Assembly (NCBI GenBank): GCA_018398765.1
Contig: JAHBMJ010001898.1
Coordinates: 1 to 22,500, forward strand
Direction of reading: 5' to 3'
Origin: Chromera velia
Lineage: Eukaryota > Sar > Chromeraceae
Length of the DNA stretch: 22,500 nucleotides
The notes below the pieces were generated by a model. That model saw nothing but the letters and a program-made list of their open reading frames with translations, made no database searches and was not told the origin of the DNA. Below are positions 5,228 through 22,500 of this stretch, in pieces. The position numbers were made by a program, and so were the translations under genes. The number at the start of each line of letters is the position of its first letter. Position 1 is the stretch's first letter.

Positions 5228-5386
5228 CCTGTATTGGGTGCCAACTGATCGAGTGACGAAGACGCAACAAGCAAACAAGCAGAGCGCTAGGCAGAGCGTT
5301 ACTTTCCCTGTATTGGGTGCCAACTGATCGAGTGACGAAGACGCAACAAGCAAACAAGCAGAGCGCTAGGCAGAGCGTTACTTTCC
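5228..5386. repeat. Perfect 79-bp tandem duplication
   Basis: Two adjacent copies, 5228-5306 and 5307-5385, appear identical throughout, each running from CCTGTATTGGGTGCC to GCGTTACTTTC. The unit is not a multiple of three and does not sit in a supported gene. Perfect identity suggests a recent event or an assembly artefact. Confidence 0.95.
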
Positions 5387-5813: not shown

Positions 5814-7635
5814 TCAGGTACGACCCGAGTACGCCCTCCTGTCTCTCCTCTTGAGAGGCTTCAGAGCGGCCACCTGAGGATCTCTCTTTTCTTTCACCTC
5901 CAGTTCTTTCTTCCTCTCCCTCTCCCTCTCTACCACACACGGCACTTCTGCTGTTGCATTCTGAAACGAAGAGAAGGAACAACTCAAGACTTCCTTCTTT
6001 TCCTCCCCTTCCTCGTTCCCTTCTCTTCTTGCACCTTCACGCTCTTCGTTCTTCCCCCTCAACCTCAACACCAAACTCACGAGACGCGCCCCCCCTTCCG
6101 TCACTGCCGAGACCACCACCGAGTCACCAGCCTCCCACGCCACGGCAACGAAGGAAACCAAAGACACCACTGTCCAAAGCAACGCCTCCCTGCCATCAGC
6201 CCCCAAAGAAAAAGCCCACACCACCCAGAGAGAGGAGTGCACAGTCTGCACCCACCCCCCTGCGCGGTACAATTTCAGAGGCGCCACCCCCAAATTCAGA
6301 GCCCTGTACGAGGCTTGAAGAACGAACACCCCCGCGAGACCTCCACGCACTCCGCCCACTCCCTTCTCGAGGGCAGCCCGAAAGAAGATCAGAAGGAAGA
6401 CGCTCACGTCCACAGAGCTGGCCAAAGTCACTTCCTTCCGCACCTGCATCCATCCATCCAATCAATCAGAAAGAATCCAACCAAATGCAGAACAGGATCG
6501 AGTCAAAAACGGGAGCCAGGGAAACCATTCGATCAGTCAGTCCTCTTGTCAGTTGCTTTTCCTTCTCGCACCCTCATGCACGACTCCACTCAGTTGGAAG
6601 AGAAAATTCAGAGAGAGCCAATCCGATGTGAAGTCTCACCCTTGAAGGACATACAACCAAAAATGTGACCCTGGGGGCATGATCGGCATTCAGAAAAAGG
6701 AATAAGAGAGCAAAATAGGCAGGGAAGAAGACAGAAAACAGGTGTGTGTAAGAAAGGCGAAGCCTGTTCCCGTCTCGTCCTCCCCCCTCGCCCATACGAA
6801 TTTCTCCCCCCATCCACCCACCCTCACCACCGACCCGTTCGATCGAATGGAACCCCTTCACGTAGAGCGTGTAGCCCAAAAACCCGTCCAGCACCATTTT
6901 CGTCCAGAGCATTCCGTTGAAGTACAGGAACACACGGTTGCGTCCATCGGACACCGGGCTGCTCTCACCCCCCCACACCGCCATTTGCACCAAGAGGATC
7001 CACTCGCAATAGGCCCTGACTGTGTGGGAGTAGGTGCTCAGGATTACCCCGAAAGGGTACAGCATAAACAGGGCTACTGCACTATCCAACAGCCTCAGCC
7101 AGAGGCCGCCCCCCGGCAGAAACACAGCCCGGAAGGCCAAATAGGGATACTGCAGACTAGCCACCGCCCTTCCCCAGTTGTACCTCTTTTGTCTCGAGGC
7201 CGAGTCTCCGAGTTTGGGTGTGGAGAAAACGAACCCTTGGAAGGGCATGGGGAGGGCCGTGAGGGTGCACAGCAGCGCTGAGAAGATCCAGACTGCTGCT
7301 ATGATCTGATGGGAGCTGAATTGGGCATCGCTCTGTGAGTGAAGGAGCGATTGGACGGAGCTGTCAAGGGAGAAGCCTGTGACTAGGAGACGGAAAAACT
7401 CCAACCAGACAAGGACGAAGGCACTGGCCCCAAAGAGAGCGTGGCAAACACCCAAAGCGCCAAATCGAAAGAGTGCGGGTTTCGCTCGTTCGTTCGGCAG
7501 ATCCCTCCTCTTTGGGTGTGCAAAGCTCGCAAAGGGGCAGGAGGAAGGTGGGGATGAGGGCGTAGACGGGGAATCGTGAGAAGATTCACTCCGGCTTTTT
7601 TGGTCCTTGTCTTGAAAGGCGAACGGGCAAGACAT
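5814..7635 (-). CDS. Unrecognised multi-pass membrane protein, two-exon model
   Basis: Exon 1 is 7635-6835, starting at the first ATG (MSCPFAFQ); exon 2 is 6443-5814. The join uses a GTCGGT donor and a GATGCAG acceptor, is in phase, and gives about 476 residues. A Ser/Pro-rich N-terminus of about 55 residues is followed by hydrophobic segments at roughly 60-85, 110-135 and 165-210, by others around 215-260, and by three more in exon 2. The C-terminal tail is rich in Glu, Lys and Arg. I do not recognise the family; transport or a structural membrane role are both possible. Another model ends exon 1 at 6828 (donor GTGAGG) and adds a 32-base micro-exon at 6671-6640 before the same exon 2; it is also in phase. 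The gene is head-to-head with the YdcZ-like gene. Confidence 0.55.
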
Positions 7636-8627: not shown

Positions 8628-10063
8628 ATGAATCCGTGGCTGAAGGGGCTGATTGCCCTTTGGCCCTTTGCCATTGGCTCTCTGACTCCCCTCAATGCCC
8701 TCATCATGCTCTCACTCGGACAGACCCTCCGCACGTCCATCCTCTGGCCTCTTCTGATGAACTACGGACCCCAGATGCTATTCTGTCTTCCCTTCAGCTT
8801 CCCCGGACCTCCCTTGTCTGATGTCTTCCAAAGGTTCCGAGAAAGACTGGGTAAGAGTCCCGTAGACGGATTCTCTTTGGTGGCAGGTGTTGTCTCCTCG
8901 GCAGGTATCGGGATCCAGGCGTATTGTTCGGGGCGTATTGGGTTTGGGGTCACGTATGTGACGACGACCTGTGTGATGGTTGTGCTCTCTGCCCTCATTG
9001 ACTCTTTTGGTCTTTTGTGGGCAGTCAGGAGACGGCTGCGAGTGGTGGACTATGTGAGCATCGTGCTGATTGTTGTGGGCACCGCTGTGTGGGTGTTTGA
9101 GAGGGGGCCGGGGACAACAGGTCCAGAGGGGGTCCGGCTGTCTCCAGCAGAGTACGGGGGGACGGTGGTGCTTGCCGCTGTAGGCGCCGCCTCACTTCTG
9201 TCGTCAGGGCCCTTGAATAAGAGACTCAGCCAGTCAACAGGCAACACTTTTAGAACGACATTGTGAGTCTGTCTGTCCACCTGTCTCCTTTTTATCCCTT
9301 TCCTTGTCAATTGAGTCCGCGTGTGTCATGGCTGCTTTTCGACGGAAAGTAAATGGGCAGGAGAAGGCAAGTGAAGTCTTTCGTTCTCTCGCCTCCCCTC
9401 TCTTGTCTCTTTCTGTCAGTCTCTTCATCTTTGTCAGCCTGCCTGTCCATTCACATGCGTTTGTGCCTCCGTTGCATGCATGCAATCAAACTTTGTGCCT
9501 GTCTGCAGATTTGCGAGTGCGGTTGCTTCCGTGGCGATTGTGAGTGTGGCAGCAGGGGTGGACCCGCACCCCCAGTTCCACCGCATCGACAGCTCGAATT
9601 GGTGGAAACTCCTGACCTGCGTGGTCAGTAAGTCGGGCAGGCAGTCAGGTCCTCGATCCGTGGCAGGCAGGCAGTGATTCCTTCCATGCAGCTGATTCAT
9701 TGATTCGTGGTTGATGAAAGAAGTGACAATCATGAATCAAGCACGCAGAGAGAGAGATGGGGGTCGATCGGAAAAACACGAAGAGACAAACATACGTAAA
9801 GAAAGAAAGAAAGGGCAGGTAGACAGGAAAGGAGTCATGCAGGATACCGTCTGACTACCGAAATCTTCTTTGGCCGTTCGCTTGCTGCCCCCCCTCCTTC
9901 CGTTTACAATGAAGGTGGAAGGAGAGTTCCTGTTTTCTTTTAAGCAAGACAAGGGCGTAAGGAAGTGAAGAGAGAGGGAAGAGTCCAGATTGTTTATGAG
10001 ACCTTCACTTTGATGGAAAGTGCACCTCGCCGTGAACGAACGGGTCAATCTGCAGCATGATCA

Positions 10064-13817: not shown

Positions 13818-16800
13818 TCACGCTCGGGCCTTCTTCGCAGGCCGCTCTGCCCCCTCGGCCCCCCCGTCTGCCTGTGCAGTTCCAGCCTCCCCCCCTGAGA
13901 GGGAGAGAAGACCATTGAGGGCAGGCCCCCCCGCAACCCAGCCAGAGGGGATCACCGCGAGGGGACAGGGACCTGCTCGGGCTCTCTGACGCATCACTGC
14001 GTCGATGACAACCTGTAGGGACACGTGCGCAAGACAGAATCTGAATCGCACAAATGCATGCATGGTATTAGAGGCTTTCCGCAAGGCGAGACAATGACAG
14101 CTGTTTTTGTTTTGCAAAGCGAGAAGAAAGGAAAGTCGGTGGGAAGGGACAACTCTATGAGTCGCTCTTCCAGGATGCTTTTGCGATCTTGCGAATGAAG
14201 AAATCCTTGCAAGCCTCTGAGGGGAACCGAGGCGGCGAGGGTGAAGGACGATCAGAGCACTCAGATGCAAAATTAAGGAGAAGTCAGGAAGGAGCACAAA
14301 GAAGTGGTTGTGTGACTGCGCTGCATGTGTTTTGTCTTTCTGCCTGACGTGGTGCAAGAATGAGTGAACGACGGTAGCATGTGTGTATGCACACAGGTAC
14401 ATCAAAGGGAAAGGAAGAACAGAAAGAATGACTTCATCCCCCCGACCATTGCCGCCATTCCCTCCACCAGAGGGGGGGCTCGAGGGAGAACGCAGGGGTC
14501 ATGTCGGCCTGCAGGAAGAATCACTCACTCACACAAAAGAAGAACGAACAGACAGCCAGAGAGGAGGTGGAGAGAGGAGACAGGGCAACAAGAGACGAGG
14601 AAGAGAAGATCAGGCGGAAGGAACAGAGAGCTGTGTGGGTCGCTACCGTTTGAGAAAGGCATTTCGAAAGCGTTTAATTTGTTTCACATGCACTAAAACA
14701 ACGATTCTTAGCATGTATGACGATCCCTGTATCTGTGCCCCAAAATGTATCGGCACACCTAGTCATCTGCCTTCTTGACTTTGATCATATGTAGGCGAAA
14801 TTTCGGCATGCACACATCGACGCTTGCAGGAGCCAGTGAGGTGTGGGGACATTTTGAAACCGGAAAATAAGATGACAAAGAAACGAAAGGTAGTGGACCG
14901 TCTTGGTGTAGAGCGGACCACTGAGAGAGGGTGCGAAGCAATCGGCCAAGGGGACAAAAAGAAGACAAAGAAGGCAAGAAATTCGCTAACACATCGCATC
15001 ATAAAGAAACAAGGGGGGGGCGGGAGCGTCCGCTGATTTTCTGTTTCTTCAAAGAGCGGAGGAGGGGGCGTATTGTTTGCTCCTTTCCTCGTCCATCTAC
15101 TTTGAGGATTTGACTCTACTGCCTGCAGTCCGGCTCACTTCCTCTTCCTTGATTTTGCCTGGATGAACGGACGGAAAGTGGGAAGGGCGAATGAGCATTA
15201 CAAAGTCGCCCTCAGCAAAAGAAGTAAGCGCCCGTGCAAGAAAAAAGAACGGCACTCCAATCTCTGGGAAGGCGGCTTCTTCCTTCATTCTTGCCTGTCT
15301 GTTCTGTCTGGTCTCCCTGCACTCACCCACCCTTCACCTCCAGCGTGTCCATTTTTCCAGAGAATCGACAGGACTCCTGCTGGATGGAGATGGACGACAC
15401 GGCCTTGATGGCCACTCGGAAGACGAAATTCTGCCCTGCAACCACCCATCCAACCATGCATGCATGCATGCATGCAGCAAGGCGTTCGCTCCCTTTATGG
15501 ACAAACAAGCACACACACAAGGATACCGACACAGAAAAAGCGAGAAGCAAACAGGCTTTCACAGATTTCTGTTTACGACACAAAGGCGATCACCAACTGA
15601 CTGACACATCTTTCAACTCAAGAGGTCCCGACCGTGTCGTTCCTTCAATTAACATGAAAGCCTTTTCCTCTACATCCCTTCAACGTGCGTCTGGCATCAT
15701 TTGGGCTTGGGCGGGGAGTCCCGGTGACTTACCGAAAGCACTGCCGCCCAACCAGCCTGTTGAAGAATGCAGGACATACTTTTGTCATACAATCATCATC
15801 ATTCAAAAAGCCACGCAGACAGACAGACAGACAGACAGACAATCAGAATGTCCGACCTGATGCAATGCCTCCGAGCGTCCCCCCTGCGTGGTTCGTTTTG
15901 CTCAACAGCACCGGGACGGGGTCCGAAGAAGAGACGGCCCCTGCGGCGGCGGGGGACGGGACGTGTGCTGCCTCAGAGGGCAGTCTGGCAACAAACAAGT
16001 CGTTGTGCTCCGACCCCCTCATGGACACACCAGCAAACCCCTCACCGAACTCGAAGCCTTTCGTCGCGGGCAGAGAAAGCATCGCCTTGGCCATCTCAGC
16101 CTCCAACTGGAATGGGGAATGGAGAGAGAGTTGGACGAAAGTGGATACAAAGAGGAGGAACAGTGAGGATTGAAAAAAATACATATCTATGTGCGGAATG
16201 ATGAGTGCAGCAGCTGGTCCTTTAACTGGAAATGATCTTTTTCTCTTAAATACAGTGCACACAGATGTTCTCTAAATGAGCCAGCAAGCCCACAGGTAGG
16301 AAGGCAGGCGAGAGGACCAAAAAAGAAATCGGATGCCTCCTTCCTTCCTTCCTTCCTTCCTTCCTTCCTTCCATCCCGACATCCCATGGACCCGTCGTCC
16401 CCTACCCTGCCCTACCCTGCCCAACCTGTCGCTCCCATCCCTCCTCCCTTTCCTCCTTTCTTCCTTACCTCCCCCCCTTTCCGCTGCTGCCGACCTTATC
16501 GAAACAAGGTTCCCCCACCCCGATGGGAATGCTGGAGACTGCTGTCGTCAGGATGCCCCCAGTAGAGTCGTGGGCTTCTCTCAGCTGCATCCATTTGTCC
16601 ATCAGTCATTGGTTCTTTCATTCAGCCTGCTGGTTCATAGAGGTGCGGATGCAGTCAAAAAGGAAACAAGCTGGCAGGCAGGCAGGCAGGCAGGTGAGGA
16701 CATCATTCCTCGATCGCAGATCTCACCCGACAGGCATCCTCCCCTCGAGAAGAGAGGTAAGGAGAGAAGCAACAGAAGGGCTTTTACAGGACAAAAAAAA

Positions 16801-19699
16801 AGCATGCGCTTACTCTCATACAAAAAAAAAAACAGAAGGGCTTTTACAGGACCAAAAAAAACATGCGTTTACTTTCATACAAAAAAAAAAAAACAGAAGG
16901 GCTTTTACAGGACAACAAAAAAACAGTGACCAGGCAGCAGCCCGAAAAACTGAAAAGAGGGCAGCGGGGAAAGGAAGGAAGAACGGGAAAGTCATGAATG
17001 AGGCCACCACACATGGAGGGAGACAAAAGGGCAGACACACCTCGCCAATGTGTGCAGCTATTCGTGCTGCTGTGGGTGGGTGTGGGCACCTTGTATGGAC
17101 AACTTTCAGGTCCTTTTCCGCTTCCTTCTCCCCCCCGTTAGCAGACGCAGACGCGTTTGGAAGGGGTTCTCCCGTCTTGCTGCAGTACGAGACTCCGTTC
17201 ACGTCCCTGTAGTTGCCTGTGAGAAGGAAGAAGAAAGAAAAGGCATACATGCAGACAGACTCTGTTATCTCTCTTCTTTCTGCTTTCCTTTCTTTCTCTT
17301 GCCTGGTGAGTCAAGATAAGCAAATCAGACAAAAAGGCCTAGGGGCCCTGGACAAGTACGAAGAGATGGCGAATTGAATAAGAACAGAAAAACTAAAAAA
17401 ACAAAAAACGGACGAGGTGACGAACAATGAAAGCAAAAACAATATGCAAACGCATGCAGACATCCAGACATCCAGACAGACAGACATCCAGACAGACAGA
17501 CAGACAGACAGACAGACCGTCAGGTAGAACAAAGAGCATCCCGAGCCTGTCCACCTCTGCACGTGTGGGCGGTTGTGCTTCCAGTTTCTTTGCCTCTGCC
17601 GGAGGAAGAGACACGCGCCCCGCGGCGCTGACCCACGACACGATGGTGCTGCCGTAAGTCTCCAACAGCCATTTCTCTGCCACAGCTCCCTGCAGTGAGT
17701 GCATCATTCAGCCAAGGTGGGAGAGGAAGGATGACAGAGATTCCGGTCAATGCACCTACCCAGATTTGTTCGGATTCATCTGGCAAAGAATCAGCAAGAC
17801 AGTCAGACAGAATCTTCGGCCGTTGGCAGTATGGACAAGAAAAGGGTTGTGACATGCGAACACCCACACCCACACGCACATTGACGCATGCACAAAAGGA
17901 GAAAGGAAAAGAGAAAGGCTGACAGAGAGGGACCGCCTGACGCACAAAATCCCTGATAGACTGACCGCCGCCACTCTCCCGATGGTCTCTCTTGCAGACG
18001 CCCGCCCGCCTCCACTGGAGGCCTTCACACCATACTTGACTTGGTAAGTGTAGTCGGCGTGTCCGGGGCCTGAAGGCAGGAAAGAGAGAAAGAAAGTAGG
18101 GGATCTTCTTCCTTCATTCCTTCCGTCCTTCCTGTGCCTGTCGGTGAGGACGCGGTTCCACCGACTGAGGAACTTCGTCTCTCTTCTTGCTCTGCCTCTG
18201 TCTGTGTGTGAATGGAACCCGAAGGAGAGGAAAGCAGCCAGACCAGTCGAGCAAGGAAGAAGGAAGAAGAAAGGGGGGCAGACAAAGTCGATCTGCGATC
18301 CATCAGGGAGACGGCAGAGAGGCTTAAATTTCGATTCAAGGGAGAGAGGCATGATGGACTGACGTGGGTGATCCAGAGTGTTGGCGTATGCATTCATTTT
18401 CACACAGAGTTCTTTTTCAGGATGTATGAAAATGATTGAATGGAGGCATGATGGACTGACGTGGGTGATCCAGAGTGTTGGCGTATGCATTCATTTTCAC
18501 ACAGAATTCTTTTTCAGGATGTATGAAAATGATTGAATGGATGCATGATGGACTGACGTGGGTGATCCAGAGTGTTGGCGTATGCATTCATTTTCACACA
18601 GAGTTCTTTTTCAGGATGTATGAAAATGATTGAATGGAGGCATGATGGACTGACGTGGGTGATCCAGAGTGTTGGCGTAGTCAAACTTCCTCTGGTCCTG
18701 ATTCCTCACAAGGAGCCCGATGGGGGTTCCCAGAGTGACCCCGTTCTCGCATCCAGACAGGATCTGCACTGTGTCTGTCTGCACATACACAGAGGGAGAA
18801 GGGGAGGGAGAGAAAAAGAGAGAGAGAGAGAGGGAGAGAGAGGGGGGGGGNGGGGGGGGGGGGGGACAAGGGGAGAGATCTCTTTGACCATCCCGTTTCA
18901 AACAGAGTAGTAGGCGAAAGCAAGCAGGAAAGAAACTGCACATTTTGCCAGGTACGGAACCGATGTGTTTTCCCCTCGTTCTTCCCTTTCTCCTTCTTCC
19001 CTTGGTTGATGCAGAAAACAAAAGCCGGACCTCCACACACCCACCACACCCCCTCTGACTGACGAAGGAACGAAAGAACAAACGAACCTCCTGTCTCGGG
19101 GTGGTCAGGGCCGACTGGCCGGGCCGTCTCCTTGTCAGTTGGGGCTGCAGACGGTCACCCAGACACGCAGATGGACAGAGATTCCTCATACATGCAGAAA
19201 GACGCATTCGATGCTCGGAGTTGAGTCAGCAGATTCACAGGGTGGGAGAGGAAGAGACAGACGGAAAGACAGACCGGAGGAAACGATTGAAGACAGCTAC
19301 AGGCAGACAGAGCCGCCAGACAGAGGGACACTTACACGAAGAGGACCAGACAGAGCTAGACATAAATGGAATGGTACAGAAAGCACTGACACAGAAGGAG
19401 TAAAAAGAACAGAGACGGAAAGGGAGAGGGACCGAAAGGACCGACCGAAGGGAAAACCGACGCGAGACGGGAGACGGAGGAAGGATGGAGACAAGGGACG
19501 AGACAGGAAGAAAAGACATGACAGGTGCACCGCAGCGCTCACACGGAAACACAGAAAGGCTTTTACAGCTCCCCCTCACCTGTATGTCTGCCTCTGTGAG
19601 TTTGAGCCCTGGAGGTACCCCATCGATGATGCACCCTACCCCGACTCCGTGAGACTCCCCGAACGTGCTGACCCTGAACAGAGTGCCGAAAACGCTCAT
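13818..19699 (-). CDS. aroC: Chorismate synthase, 11 exons
   Basis: The enzyme converts 5-enolpyruvylshikimate-3-phosphate to chorismate, the last shikimate-pathway step, using reduced FMN. Exons: 19699-19580, 19144-19088, 18778-18655, 18069-17966, 17689-17518, 17216-17041, 16584-16495, 16106-15857, 15435-15331, 14508-14447, 14012-13818. They total 1455 bases, 484 residues plus stop, and every phase agrees. All three family signatures are present: GESHG at 14-18 (His17 being the conserved active-site His), the [16 protein letters not shown] region at 121-136, and [18 protein letters not shown] at 400-417. HADYTY at 104-109 and GEPCFDK at 275-281 are also typical. Compared with yeast Aro2 it has an insertion of about 44 residues before RCP (236), another of about 20 near 325-350, and a 50-residue C-terminal tail. 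ATG at 19699 is the first in frame and starts the conserved domain directly, so no plastid leader is visible; a cytosolic enzyme is inferred. Confidence 0.93.
15816..15841. repeat. (CAGA)n microsatellite in chorismate synthase intron 8
   Basis: Uninterrupted four-base repeats lie 15 bases inside the intron, just past the exon-8 donor. Confidence 0.9.
16337..16372. repeat. (TTCC)n microsatellite in chorismate synthase intron 7
   Basis: Nine or so tandem TTCC units. Related but shorter CTTCC tracts occur near 3060, 4035 and 18110. Confidence 0.9.
16771..16922. repeat. Three tandem copies of a 60-61 bp A-tailed unit in intron 6
   Basis: Copies start at 16771, 16831 and 16892. Each begins AACAGAAGGGCTTTTACAGG and continues into A-runs and a CATGCG(C/T)TTACT(C/T)TCATAC segment; the third is cut short. 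A similar word, ACAGAAAGGCTTTTACAG, occurs at about 19550-19567 in intron 1. Confidence 0.9.
17466..17516. repeat. (GACA)n microsatellite at the intron 5 donor
   Basis: On the coding strand this is (TGTC)n, which begins with the GTCTGT donor itself, so the 5' splice site of intron 5 is the first unit of a microsatellite. Confidence 0.85.
18347..18679. repeat. 97-bp tandem array copying the exon 3/intron 3 junction
   Basis: Full units at 18347-18443, 18444-18540 and 18541-18637, then a 42-base partial unit at 18638-18679 that includes the genuine last 25 bases of exon 3 and its donor. Only about two substitutions separate the full units. Each copy carries the same GTCAGT donor on the minus strand. 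Confidence 0.95.
18800..18866. repeat. GA microsatellite and G-run with an undetermined base
   Basis: A (GA)n stretch runs into about 24 Gs (18842-18865) with an N at 18851. It lies in intron 2 of chorismate synthase. The N marks a sequencing or assembly weak point; it does not touch coding bases. Confidence 0.9.
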
Positions 19700-20301: not shown

Positions 20302-22500
20302 ATGCACTTGACCGAAATGCACGAGCAGCTTTGGCTATCGTGTCCACGTCCCTCCTGTAACGACCAAAAAGTTCGGAAGGGCACACCGCTGGGGCAAGTC
20401 CCAGGAATCCACTCCAGACGTTCAGGTTCCTTGCATTTGCTTGGGACGTCTCCGAGAAGGAGGACGGTGAGGACAGAGAACGTCACGATGCTCCTGGGAC
20501 CCTATCTTCCCCAGTCAGCAGAGCCTTCCTCTTCTTTTTCAAAGAGAAAGAAGGGCAACAAGACCCTTCTCGACATATGTTCCCTTTCCTCACGTGAATT
20601 TGGCCGGCGGGTTTCGAAAAGAGAGAACGGACGCAAATCCAGGGGAACAGGGACGGACGTCACAGGAGCAGACAGCCGTCTCTTGAACCAGCGTCACGCC
20701 TCTTCCTCATCTGCCTCTTCCTTTTCTACCCAAACGAAGCCGTCAGAGAAGGCACAGCAGCTCTGGGTGGCAGCAGACGTGGCAGGCGTCCGCACTCGCC
20801 CCTCTTCGTCTTCCCTCTCCTCTGTGTACGGGGGGGTTGCAGGCGGTGGAACTGGCGCACGCCGCCCTCCCAGTTCCTCCTTCCTGGAGGGCCTGAGGCT
20901 CTCAGGTACCCGGGGGAGGCAGGCAGCCCGACGGGAGCTGCAGACGGAAATGGACCTGGAGGTGGAGTTGATGATAGGAAGGCTGGGGAGGGAGGCGGAA
21001 GAAGAAGAAGAGGAAGAGAGGGAGGAGGGGATGGAGAGTGAAATGAATTCGGAAGGCGCACGTGGTGTTTTAGATCTCGACCATGTGGATGCAAATCCCA
21101 CACAGTGCACTGAAGGGGTGGAGGGCCAGATAGAAAGGGGAGGCTCCGAGGAATTCGTTTTCGTGACGCAGAGCGCTGATGCATCAGATTTCGTTTCGGG
21201 TGCAGAATCAGAATCGGGCTATTCCGATCCAACAAAGAAGGAACACAAACAAAAGCAGCAACGAGAAAGGGGACAAAAACAGCAAAAGAGGGTGAAGGGA
21301 AAGGAGGAGAAGGATCCCTTTGAAGATTCCAGAAGCGTTTCGCCTGAACCAGAGCCTGCACTGTCTCTGTGCTTACAGACCACAGAGACCCAAGTGGAAA
21401 CTCTAGCGGTAGGAGAATTCAGCGCGCAAAGGAAGGCGACAGAAAGGAGAGAAACAAGACAAGAGGGTGACAGACACACGGTAAGTCAAAACAAAACGAC
21501 ATCCCGATCAAATCGCCTCCTCATTCAAACGAACGACCCCAACAAAAACAGCGGCCCCCACACCCAACTGAACTCTCCACCCGTCCACCGCCCCATAATT
21601 CCCCGTCTCCGCATCCCCCCTCAACTACCCGCACCTTCCCCAAAGCCTCCCCCCGGATCTCACTCCACCCCTCTGCAGGATCCTCACTGGCTTCTCCTCG
21701 GAAGGCAGGGAAGTATCCAACAGGCCTTGACAATGACGGAGACAGAGAGAGAGACCGTCAGTTCATCTGCCGACAAAGCAAGGGATCCGTGCAGAGAGCG
21801 CGAGACAGGGAAGAGACCTGATTGGCAGGAGCAGAGAGAAAAAGAGAAAGGAAGGCTTCTCTGTTCTCCGGTCTTGCTGCAGAGTCAGCAGAAAGAAAAA
21901 TTAGCGATTGACGGCAAGAGTGCAAAAAGCTCTTCAAACAGGGACAGCTCCAAGCGGCAAAACCAACAGAAGGAAATCAGGCAAGGACAGCATCCTTCCC
22001 AGAAAGTGCCCCTTTCTTTAAAGGGGAAATTGAATACCTGCTTAGGAGGCGCCTCCGCCCCTTCTGACAAGAGGCCTCAGCGTTCACGTCCAGCCACTGC
22101 CGGCGGTGCACGTTTTCGTTCCGGTCCACAACTCTCTCTCTCTGCAGCCCCAAATAGGCCAGCGGACCTCCACAGCCTCAGACCGCTGCCTGACACCACT
22201 GCTACCCCCTCCCCCTCCCCTTCTCATCCCCACTGTTCGTTTCTCTTTCAGGAACGAATTTCAAGACTCCCCCTTCCCACTGCCCTTCCAAAAGAAGCAA
22301 GCCCAGATTCGAATTATTTACAGATCGCAGAAGACCTTTGGAAGACCAAAGGCAGCAAGGGAAGCGTCTCTGGCTTAGGTCACTGGGATGAAAAGGGAAG
22401 CGTTCAGAGAGAAGTTTTGCAGATCTTGGGGGACTCTCAAGAGTCTCTCCAGACACCTTTAGACTTCTCTTCTGTGCCTTCTTCAGACAATGCCATGGGT
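20302..22500 (+). CDS. Partial gene for a large disordered, charged protein, running off the window
   Basis: One plus-strand frame is free of stops from 20212 to the last base, 2289 bases, which is far longer than expected by chance. The first ATG is at 20302 (733 residues to the edge); others are at 20317 and 20488, and an upstream exon is possible. The protein is low in hydrophobic residues: a Ser-rich N-terminal part, an acidic coiled-coil-like segment (Glu run near residues 234-246), a Lys/Gln/Arg-rich stretch, then Ser/Pro-rich sequence. No domain is recognised. GTAAGT at 21481 and CTCTGCAG ending at 21678 could bound an intron. A good acceptor (TTTCTCTTTCAG) ending at 22251 hints at another. 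Minus-strand frames at 20694-21361 are its shadows. Confidence 0.6.
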   Translation, partial: MHLTEMHEQLWLSCPRPSCNDQKVRKGTPLGQVPGIHSRRSGSLHLLGTSPRRRTVRTENVTMLLGPYLPQSAEPSSSFSKRKKGNKTLLDICSLSSREFGRRVSKRENGRKSRGTGTDVTGADSRLLNQRHASSSSASSFSTQTKPSEKAQQLWVAADVAGVRTRPSSSSLSSVYGGVAGGGTGARRPPSSSFLEGLRLSGTRGRQAARRELQTEMDLEVELMIGRLGREAEEEEEEEREEGMESEMNSEGARGVLDLDHVDANPTQCTEGVEGQIERGGSEEFVFVTQSADASDFVSGAESESGYSDPTKKEHKQKQQRERGQKQQKRVKGKEEKDPFEDSRSVSPEPEPALSLCLQTTETQVETLAVGEFSAQRKATERRETRQEGDRHTVSQNKTTSRSNRLLIQTNDPNKNSGPHTQLNSPPVHRPIIPRLRIPPQLPAPSPKPPPGSHSTPLQDPHWLLLGRQGSIQQALTMTETERETVSSSADKARDPCRERETGKRPDWQEQREKEKGRLLCSPVLLQSQQKEKLAIDGKSAKSSSNRDSSKRQNQQKEIRQGQHPSQKVPLSLKGKLNTCLGGASAPSDKRPQRSRPATAGGARFRSGPQLSLSAAPNRPADLHSLRPLPDTTATPSPSPSHPHCSFLFQERISRLPLPTALPKEASPDSNYLQIAEDLWKTKGSKGSVSGLGHWDEKGSVQREVLQILGDSQESLQTPLDFSSVPSSDNAMG
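21481..21678 (+). other. Possible 198-base stop-free intron
   Basis: The stretch starts GTAAGT and ends CTCTGCAG. It is much richer in C and poorer in G than both flanks. Its length is a multiple of three and it has no in-frame stop, so both spliced and retained forms would encode protein. Confidence 0.45.

What the first reader, a model, noticed from the sequence alone, without database searches (positions are those of the whole stretch)
13818..19699. GTC-type splice donors dominate the chorismate synthase gene
Protein family alignment fixes most exon junctions. Donors in order are GTGAGG, GTTCGT, GTCAGT, GTCAGT, GTCTGT, GTGTGT, GTCGGC, GTCGGA, GTGGGT and GTCGGG. Six of ten have C at intron position +3, where most eukaryotes have A or G, and none is GTAAGT or GTGAGT. 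The transporter gene has a GTCAGT donor (9624) and the membrane-protein gene probably a GTCGGT (6834). For introns 3, 4, 7, 8 and 10 the spliced length equals that of yeast Aro2 around the junction, so alternatives are hard to fit. Donor recognition here may differ from the usual U1 pairing.
Basis: partly seen in the sequence, partly recalled or inferred. Interest (0 to 1): 0.7.

Follow-up and report, generated by a model that had tools for sequence, protein, structure and literature searches.

The report
Splice donors indifferent to third base
In this piece of an unidentified eukaryote's genome the sequences that mark where introns begin ignore the usual purine at the third intron base and lean instead on a G just before the intron and a G at its fifth base, a relaxed form of the ordinary splicing signal that could be checked against the whole genome.

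Summary
The chorismate synthase gene (minus strand, 19699..13818) rebuilds as 11 exons and 10 GT..CAG introns with one open frame of 484 aa, and the donors are those listed. Eight of ten junctions are fixed by colinear homology to yeast and Candida proteins; introns 5 and 6, in or beside an insert, are not. A transporter adds two homology-supported donors (GTGAGT, GTCAGT) and a membrane protein one frame-supported donor (GTCGGT).

Over 13 donors, +3 is C 8, G 4, T 1, A 0. What is abnormal is the missing +3 purine preference. The C is about what GTs in these introns carry anyway (39%; p 0.086), and +3 does not separate donors from nearby GTs (p 0.37). The signal sits at +5 G (13 of 13) and -1 G (11 of 13). 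Seven of 13 donors fit neither major human class. Best reading: an ordinary U2-type spliceosome with a relaxed G|GTNNG donor, +3 free to drift. A changed U1 is neither shown nor excluded; no genome or snRNA was available.

The parts
13818..19699 (-). Chorismate synthase gene, start codon to stop, 11 exons and 10 introns (spliced product 484 aa)
   Evidence: open frame, all ten introns GT..CAG; PDB chorismate synthases 7rca E 4e-120, 1r52 yeast E 4.4e-115; PF01264, 64.4 bits on the open frame holding exon 8
19145..19579 (-). Intron 1, donor CAG|GTGAGG
   Evidence: homology-fixed, best GT-AG alternative 38 points lower
18779..19087 (-). Intron 2, donor GAG|GTTCGT (+3 T)
   Evidence: homology-fixed, best GT-AG alternative 16 points lower
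18070..18654 (-). Intron 3, donor CAC|GTCAGT; three further identical donor copies at 18557, 18460, 18363
   Evidence: best alternative 46 lower; the copies lead to a stop at aa 114; 97-bp tandem array
17690..17965 (-). Intron 4, donor GCG|GTCAGT
   Evidence: best alternative 26 lower
17217..17517 (-). Intron 5, donor ACG|GTCTGT at the start of a GTCT microsatellite; junction not fixed by homology
   Evidence: 47 GT-AG alternatives, several scoring higher
16585..17040 (-). Intron 6, donor GAG|GTGTGT; not counted as fixed
   Evidence: one GT-AG alternative 4 points higher, donor GTCCAT 60 nt upstream, same acceptor; one search aligns residues 233-251, before the called junction, without a gap to yeast
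16107..16494 (-). Intron 7, donor AAG|GTCGGC
   Evidence: best alternative 39 lower, with the same donor
15436..15856 (-). Intron 8, donor CAG|GTCGGA
   Evidence: best alternative 58 lower, with the same donor
14509..15330 (-). Intron 9, donor AGG|GTGGGT, with a GTGAGT 4 nt downstream that the model does not use
   Evidence: (best alternative 30 lower, with the same donor)
14013..14446 (-). Intron 10, donor ATG|GTCGGG
   Evidence: best alternative 48 lower
9263..9508 (+). Transporter (DMT_YdcZ) intron 1, donor ATT|GTGAGT, an ordinary donor
   Evidence: PF04657 match 182-292 runs across the junction; the other frame-compatible pairs were not scored
9624..10137 (+). Transporter intron 2, donor GTG|GTCAGT
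   Evidence: 67.8 bits against 61.8 for the donor one codon upstream
6444..6834 (-). Membrane-protein gene intron, donor CGG|GTCGGT, acceptor CAG
   Evidence: frame only, 8 frame-compatible GT-AG pairs found, 2 of them with CAG; no Pfam match

Best explanation
The introns are ordinary U2-type GT-AG introns whose donor signal is G|GTNNG: an exon-end G and a +5 G are kept, while +3 has lost the purine preference (and +4 most of the A preference) and drifted to local base composition, which on the sense strand of these introns is C-rich after GT. How it most likely works (inferred): U1 of the usual sequence recruits through -1 G, +1 G, +2 U, +5 G and often +6 U, tolerating mismatches at its two pseudouridines; the site is then secured by U5 loop 1 at the exon end and U6 ACAGA at +5. 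The two sites without -1 G (CAC|GTCAGT, ATT|GTGAGT) both carry +4 A, +5 G, +6 T, as compensation across the junction would predict. Shown: donor sequences, base statistics, and the junctions as far as homology fixes them. Inferred: which snRNA does the reading, and that the pattern is genome-wide.
For: Ten introns with intact frame and CAG acceptors; 8 of 10 fixed by homology; two more supported in a second gene. +5 G 13 of 13 and -1 G 11 of 13, both reached by 0 of 4000 decoy samples; +3 is not distinctive (p 0.37). +3 distribution C8 G4 T1 A0 against masked intron background C 39%, G 28%, T 22%, A 11%. Nine non-purines of 13 at +3 has p 0.0002 even under a relaxed column with 80% purine (columns assumed, not measured). 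7 of 13 donors (5 of the 10 homology-supported) fall in neither of the two human classes, which together hold 98.7% of human donors (53.6% and 45.1%, PMC11732430 heading 4). Standard U1 still favours true donors over nearby GTs on average. Saccharomycotina changed the +4 preference with the U1 and U6 pairing sequences invariant (PMC10581693 passages), and a tunicate with mostly non-GT/AG introns kept its U1 5' end (PMC13326754 passages).
Against: Only 13 introns from three genes in 22.5 kb; no transcripts. A C preference is not excluded: with whole-window background P(8 or more C of 13) is 0.023, in the GTNNG context 0.036 and in the GGTNNG context 0.0105, or 0.004 on a small intron-only sample of 25. 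A at +3 is absent (0 of 13), though background predicts this in 22% of draws. Two donors pair worse with standard U1 than more than half of nearby GTs (CS3 62%, CS7 56%), and by simple pair counts the standard U at U1 position 6 separates donors from decoys least well of the four bases (mean share of decoys that beat: U 0.191, C 0.165, A 0.147, G 0.121). Amoebophrya, another alveolate with unusual donors, had no detectable U1 (PMC7789003), so a conserved U1 cannot be taken for granted.
Confidence: 0.68

Rival explanations
1. Compensated recognition: the genome's U1 (or a U1 variant), or a modification at U1 position 6, reads C at +3, so that GTC is a selected signal.
For: 8 of 13 donors have +3 C; a U1 with G at position 6 gives stronger duplexes (mean -9.0 against -5.8 kcal/mol) and fewer stronger decoys (5.8% against 17.5%), and separates best of the four bases by pair count. 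C is above the GGTNNG background (p 0.004, 0.0105). U1 was not detected in two Amoebophrya strains, whose authors suggest another way of recognition (PMC7789003 passages).
Against: The advantage is partly built in: draws of +3 from intron background reach it in 12.7% of 2000 trials. Four donors have G and one has T at +3. In three papers seen in passages, unusual donors go with a conserved U1 5' end.
Confidence: 0.08
2. A local fluke: the genome has ordinary GTRAGT donors overall and this window happens to hold weak ones.
For: Two of the 13 donors are GTGAG-type (GTGAGT at 9263; GTGAGG of intron 1); the sample is small.
Against: Genes on both strands share the pattern; 9 of 13 non-purine at +3 has p 0.0002 even under an assumed 80% purine column.
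Confidence: 0.17
3. Misplaced junctions: real splicing uses other sites.
For: Introns 5 and 6 of chorismate synthase and the membrane-protein intron are not fixed by homology. A GTAAGT with an upstream ACAG bounds a possible 24-nt mini-exon inside intron 8.
Against: Eight junctions have no competing GT-AG pair within 60 nt closer than 16 points; equal-scoring slides lose GT or AG. The mini-exon would not change the donors of the main exons.
Confidence: 0.04
4. Proteins (exon definition, or a protein replacing U1 as was suggested for Amoebophrya) carry donor choice and the snRNA pairing matters little.
For: Of four identical tandem donors in intron 3 only the exon-proximal one gives an open product, which suggests that context decides; weak 5' splice signals are reported for Symbiodinium (PMC4083563 passages) and a protein-based subunit is proposed for Amoebophrya (PMC7789003 passages).
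Against: +5 G (13 of 13) and -1 G (11 of 13) are nearly invariant, so pairing positions are under constraint.
Confidence: 0.03

Closest known systems
[quoted passage not shown]
   Same: GT..CAG ends, -1 G and +5 G as main anchors; 6 of 13 donors fit one or both classes
   Different: 7 of 13 fit neither class; -1 G and +5 G co-occur in 11 of 13, whereas the two classes are described as anti-correlated; +3 purine absent in 9 of 13
Dinoflagellate introns (Symbiodinium, Amoebophrya; PMC4083563 and PMC7789003 passages)
   Same: weak donor signal in intron-bearing protist genes
   Different: no GC or GA donor needed for the homology-fixed introns; here the inner positions are relaxed, not the GT
Saccharomycotina +4 A to U donor switch tied to METTL16 and SNRNP27K (PMC10581693 passages)
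   Same: a lineage changes one inner donor position; there U1 and U6 pairing sequences stay fixed
   Different: position +3 rather than +4; an intron-rich gene; the factor and the snRNAs are unknown here

Membership tests
U2-type GT-AG spliceosomal introns | GT at donor, AG at acceptor | tested here: met
   10 of 10 chorismate synthase introns, 2 transporter and 1 membrane-protein intron; for the eight fixed introns non-GT/AG placements gain nothing
U2-type GT-AG spliceosomal introns | donor (A/C)AG|GU(A/G)AGU (consensus as in PMC3488318): purine at +3 | tested here: not met
   4 of 13 purine at +3; p 0.0002 under an assumed 80% purine column. A departure from the consensus, not from the intron type, which varies at this position
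U2-type GT-AG spliceosomal introns | +5 G and -1 G | tested here: met
   13 of 13 and 11 of 13
U12-type introns | donor |ATATCCTT (as in PMC3488318) or its GT form (recalled) | tested here: not met
   none of the 13 donors has TATCC at +2 to +6 (list)
Dinoflagellate-type non-canonical introns | substantial GC or GA donors | tested here: not met
   for the eight fixed introns the best GC/GA-AG placement within 45 nt scored lower than the GT-AG one; the other five donors were not decided against GC/GA by homology
Changed-U1 recognition system | U1 snRNA whose 5' end is complementary to +3 C | not testable with these tools
   no genome held; no Rfam family at gathering score in the window
Chorismate synthase | colinear homology to known chorismate synthases over the whole domain | tested here: met
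   11 PDB sequences matched, all named chorismate synthase, best E 4e-120; PF01264 above cut-off on exon 8

The most novel reading that the evidence does not exclude
A genome-wide donor code G|GTCNG read by an altered U1 (changed base or modification at position 6): a eukaryote whose major spliceosome selects C at +3, which I know of nowhere else (recalled, not established by search).
Probability: 0.06. Interest if true: 0.85.

Novelty: new variant of a known kind. Interest (0 to 1): 0.42.

Why it matters
If genome-wide, a eukaryote with intron-rich genes that keeps -1 G and +5 G but drops the +3 purine would be a natural test of how much of the donor signal U1 needs and how much U5 and U6 supply, complementing the two-class picture drawn from animals, plants and yeasts. 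It would also warn that gene finders trained on GTRAGT will misplace exons in this genome. The tandem identical donors in intron 3 are a small natural experiment on donor choice.

Tried and rejected
Genome-wide logo and U1/U6 search: not possible, the genome is not held; Rfam gave no match at gathering score in the window. Literature for a donor logo of chromerids or other alveolates: search listings and the passages shown from PMC4501334, PMC3971594, PMC7789003, PMC4083563 and PMC3101222 gave no statement on +3; a search for weak splice-site motif terms returned no paper, and one for GTNNG nothing to the point in its 10 listed of 5,159. That the organism is Chromera-like is a guess from gene structure and repeats (repeats in C. 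velia are described in PMC3971594) and was not tested. The first alternative-junction test used a fixed 120-nt downstream stretch that rewarded shortened exons; it was replaced by whole-protein scoring and is cited only for GC/GA placements. Relatives in viral contigs: 16 pattern matches, none confirmed. Traces of this genome in prokaryote contigs: one repeat 26-mer, no match. Compensated U1: kept only as a rival. More genes: a codon-usage scan pointed outside the known genes to 20650-21204 (plus; score 19.2) and two weaker minus-strand stretches; these were not searched for families and no introns were added from them.

Papers: two sections of PMC11732430 (headings 4 and 8) and its outline; passages found by term, not the whole text, in PMC4501334, PMC7789003, PMC3488318, PMC3971594, PMC10581693, PMC3033335, PMC4083563, PMC8283771, PMC13326754, PMC3101222 (for PMC7789003, PMC3488318, PMC8283771 and PMC13326754 only 12 of 24, 30, 26 and 19 places were shown); all others only as search listings. 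Figures and supplements were not seen.

Full report
What was checked. The minus-strand gene at 19699..13818 was rebuilt by script from anchors around each junction. It gives 11 exons, 10 introns of 276-822 nt, one frame of 484 aa ending in a stop at 13818, and CAG at all ten acceptors. The product matches 11 solved chorismate synthase sequences, best 7rca (E 4e-120) and yeast 1r52 (E 4.4e-115).

Are the junctions forced? For introns 1, 2, 3, 4, 7, 8, 9 and 10 the best other GT-AG pair lies 16 to 58 points lower; equal scores come only from sliding both ends by 1-4 nt, which loses GT or AG. Intron 5 lies in an insert that has no aligned counterpart in the two fungal proteins, so only frame and signals fix it; its donor is the first of several identical GTCTGT in a GTCT microsatellite. 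Intron 6 has one GT-AG alternative 4 points higher (GTCCAT, 60 nt upstream) and one 1 point lower; the first would remove residues 232-251, of which phmmer aligns 233-251 without a gap to yeast, so the called donor is the likelier one, but I do not count it as fixed. So 8 of 10 are fixed, and of these 5 have C at +3, 2 have G, 1 has T.

Other introns. The transporter on the plus strand (from 8628) has two introns: ATT|GTGAGT at 9263 and GTG|GTCAGT at 9624. The first 339 of its 459 aa match PF04657 at 67.8 bits, the best stretch (182-292 on profile 5-116) running across both junctions; with the donor one codon upstream the score is 61.8. The other frame-compatible pairs listed (six per intron, the called one included) were not scored. 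The membrane-protein intron has eight frame-compatible GT-AG pairs in the stretch searched; two use the CAG acceptor, with donors GTCGGT (6834) and GTGAAG. That gene has no Pfam match, so it is weaker evidence. In all: 13 donors, 10 of them supported by homology.

What is unusual. At +3 the 13 donors have C 8, G 4, T 1, A 0; the 10 supported ones C 6, G 3, T 1. The usual consensus has A or G there (PMC3488318 passages). Nine or more non-purines of 13 has probability 0.0002 even for an assumed column with 80% purine. In human, 53.6% of donors are NN//GURAG and 45.1% AG//GUNNN (PMC11732430); here 7 of 13 are neither (5 of the 10 supported), and -1 G with +5 G occur together in 11 of 13 (8 of 10).

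What is not unusual. C after GT is common in these introns: 42% unmasked in the ten chorismate synthase introns, 39% over all 13 introns with repeats masked. Eight or more C of 13 then has p 0.086; six or more of ten 0.15 (0.21 unmasked). With both strands of the whole window as background (31% C) p is 0.023; in the GTNNG context 0.036 and in the GGTNNG context 0.0105 (0.11 and 0.004 on intron sites only, the last from 25 sites). Compared with 362 GT decoys within 200 nt (not repeat-masked), +3 does not separate donors (p 0.37) and neither does +6 (p 0.30); -1 and +5 do (0 of 4000 samples each), as do -3 (p 0.0005), -2 (0.017) and +4 (0.020). So the data favour a released +3 over a selected C, though a modest C preference is not excluded.

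Does U1 pairing look different? With the standard 5' end, duplex energies of the 13 donors average -5.8 kcal/mol and on average 17.5% of GTs within 150 nt are stronger; for CS3 and CS7 it is 62% and 56%, for the other 11 at most 25%. An imagined U1 with G at position 6 gives -9.0 and 5.8%. By plain pair counts the share of decoys that beat the true donor is 0.191 for the standard U at position 6, 0.165 for C, 0.147 for A and 0.121 for G: the standard base is the least helpful of the four, as expected if +3 purine is not selected. Drawing +3 from background gives an equal or larger energy advantage for the G variant in 12.7% of 2000 trials, so this is weak evidence for a changed U1. The gene also holds two GTAAGT and three GTGAGT at places that the model does not use as donors, one of them 4 nt below donor 9.

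Mechanism. I take the introns to be ordinary U2-type with a G|GTNNG donor. The exon-end G and +5 G are named as the most conserved human bases beyond the termini and branchpoint, and their association is ascribed to U5 and U6 as well as U1 (PMC8283771 passages). The two sites without -1 G both have +4 A, +5 G, +6 T, as compensation across the junction predicts, but two sites prove nothing. Shifts of donor preference with unchanged U1 are documented in Saccharomycotina and, for a far stronger departure, in a tunicate. Against taking this for granted, no U1 was detected in two Amoebophrya strains with mostly non-canonical introns. The reading by snRNAs is inferred; no snRNA of this organism was seen.

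Limits. Thirteen introns, three genes, no transcripts, no genome, organism unnamed. No statement on +3 in chromerids or other alveolates was seen in the listings or the passages read; figures and supplements, where donor logos would be, could not be read, so absence in print is not claimed.

Noticed in passing
18346-18679: A 97-bp tandem array (3.4 copies) repeats the end of exon 3 and the start of intron 3, giving four identical CAC|GTCAGT donors (18654, 18557, 18460, 18363); using any of the three extra ones brings a stop at aa 114.
   Followed up: partly
15733-15756: Inside intron 8, minus strand, a 24-nt in-frame stretch lies between ACAG| and |GTAAGT; as a mini-exon it would insert eight residues after GGIASG.
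   Followed up: partly
17453-17517: The donor of intron 5 is the start of a GTCT microsatellite, so several identical GTCTGT donors follow each other.
   Followed up: partly
671-1729: Minus-strand open frame with two DUF5763 stretches (E 8.1e-16) and a sub-threshold staphylococcal-nuclease-like match (18.6 bits, cut-off 21).
   Followed up: no
5228-5386: A perfect two-copy tandem repeat of 79 bp.
   Followed up: no
20650-21204: Plus-strand stretch with coding-like codon usage (score 19.2), possibly part of another gene; not searched for families.
   Followed up: no
16771-16925: A 61-bp tandem repeat with A runs inside intron 6 of the chorismate synthase gene.
   Followed up: no
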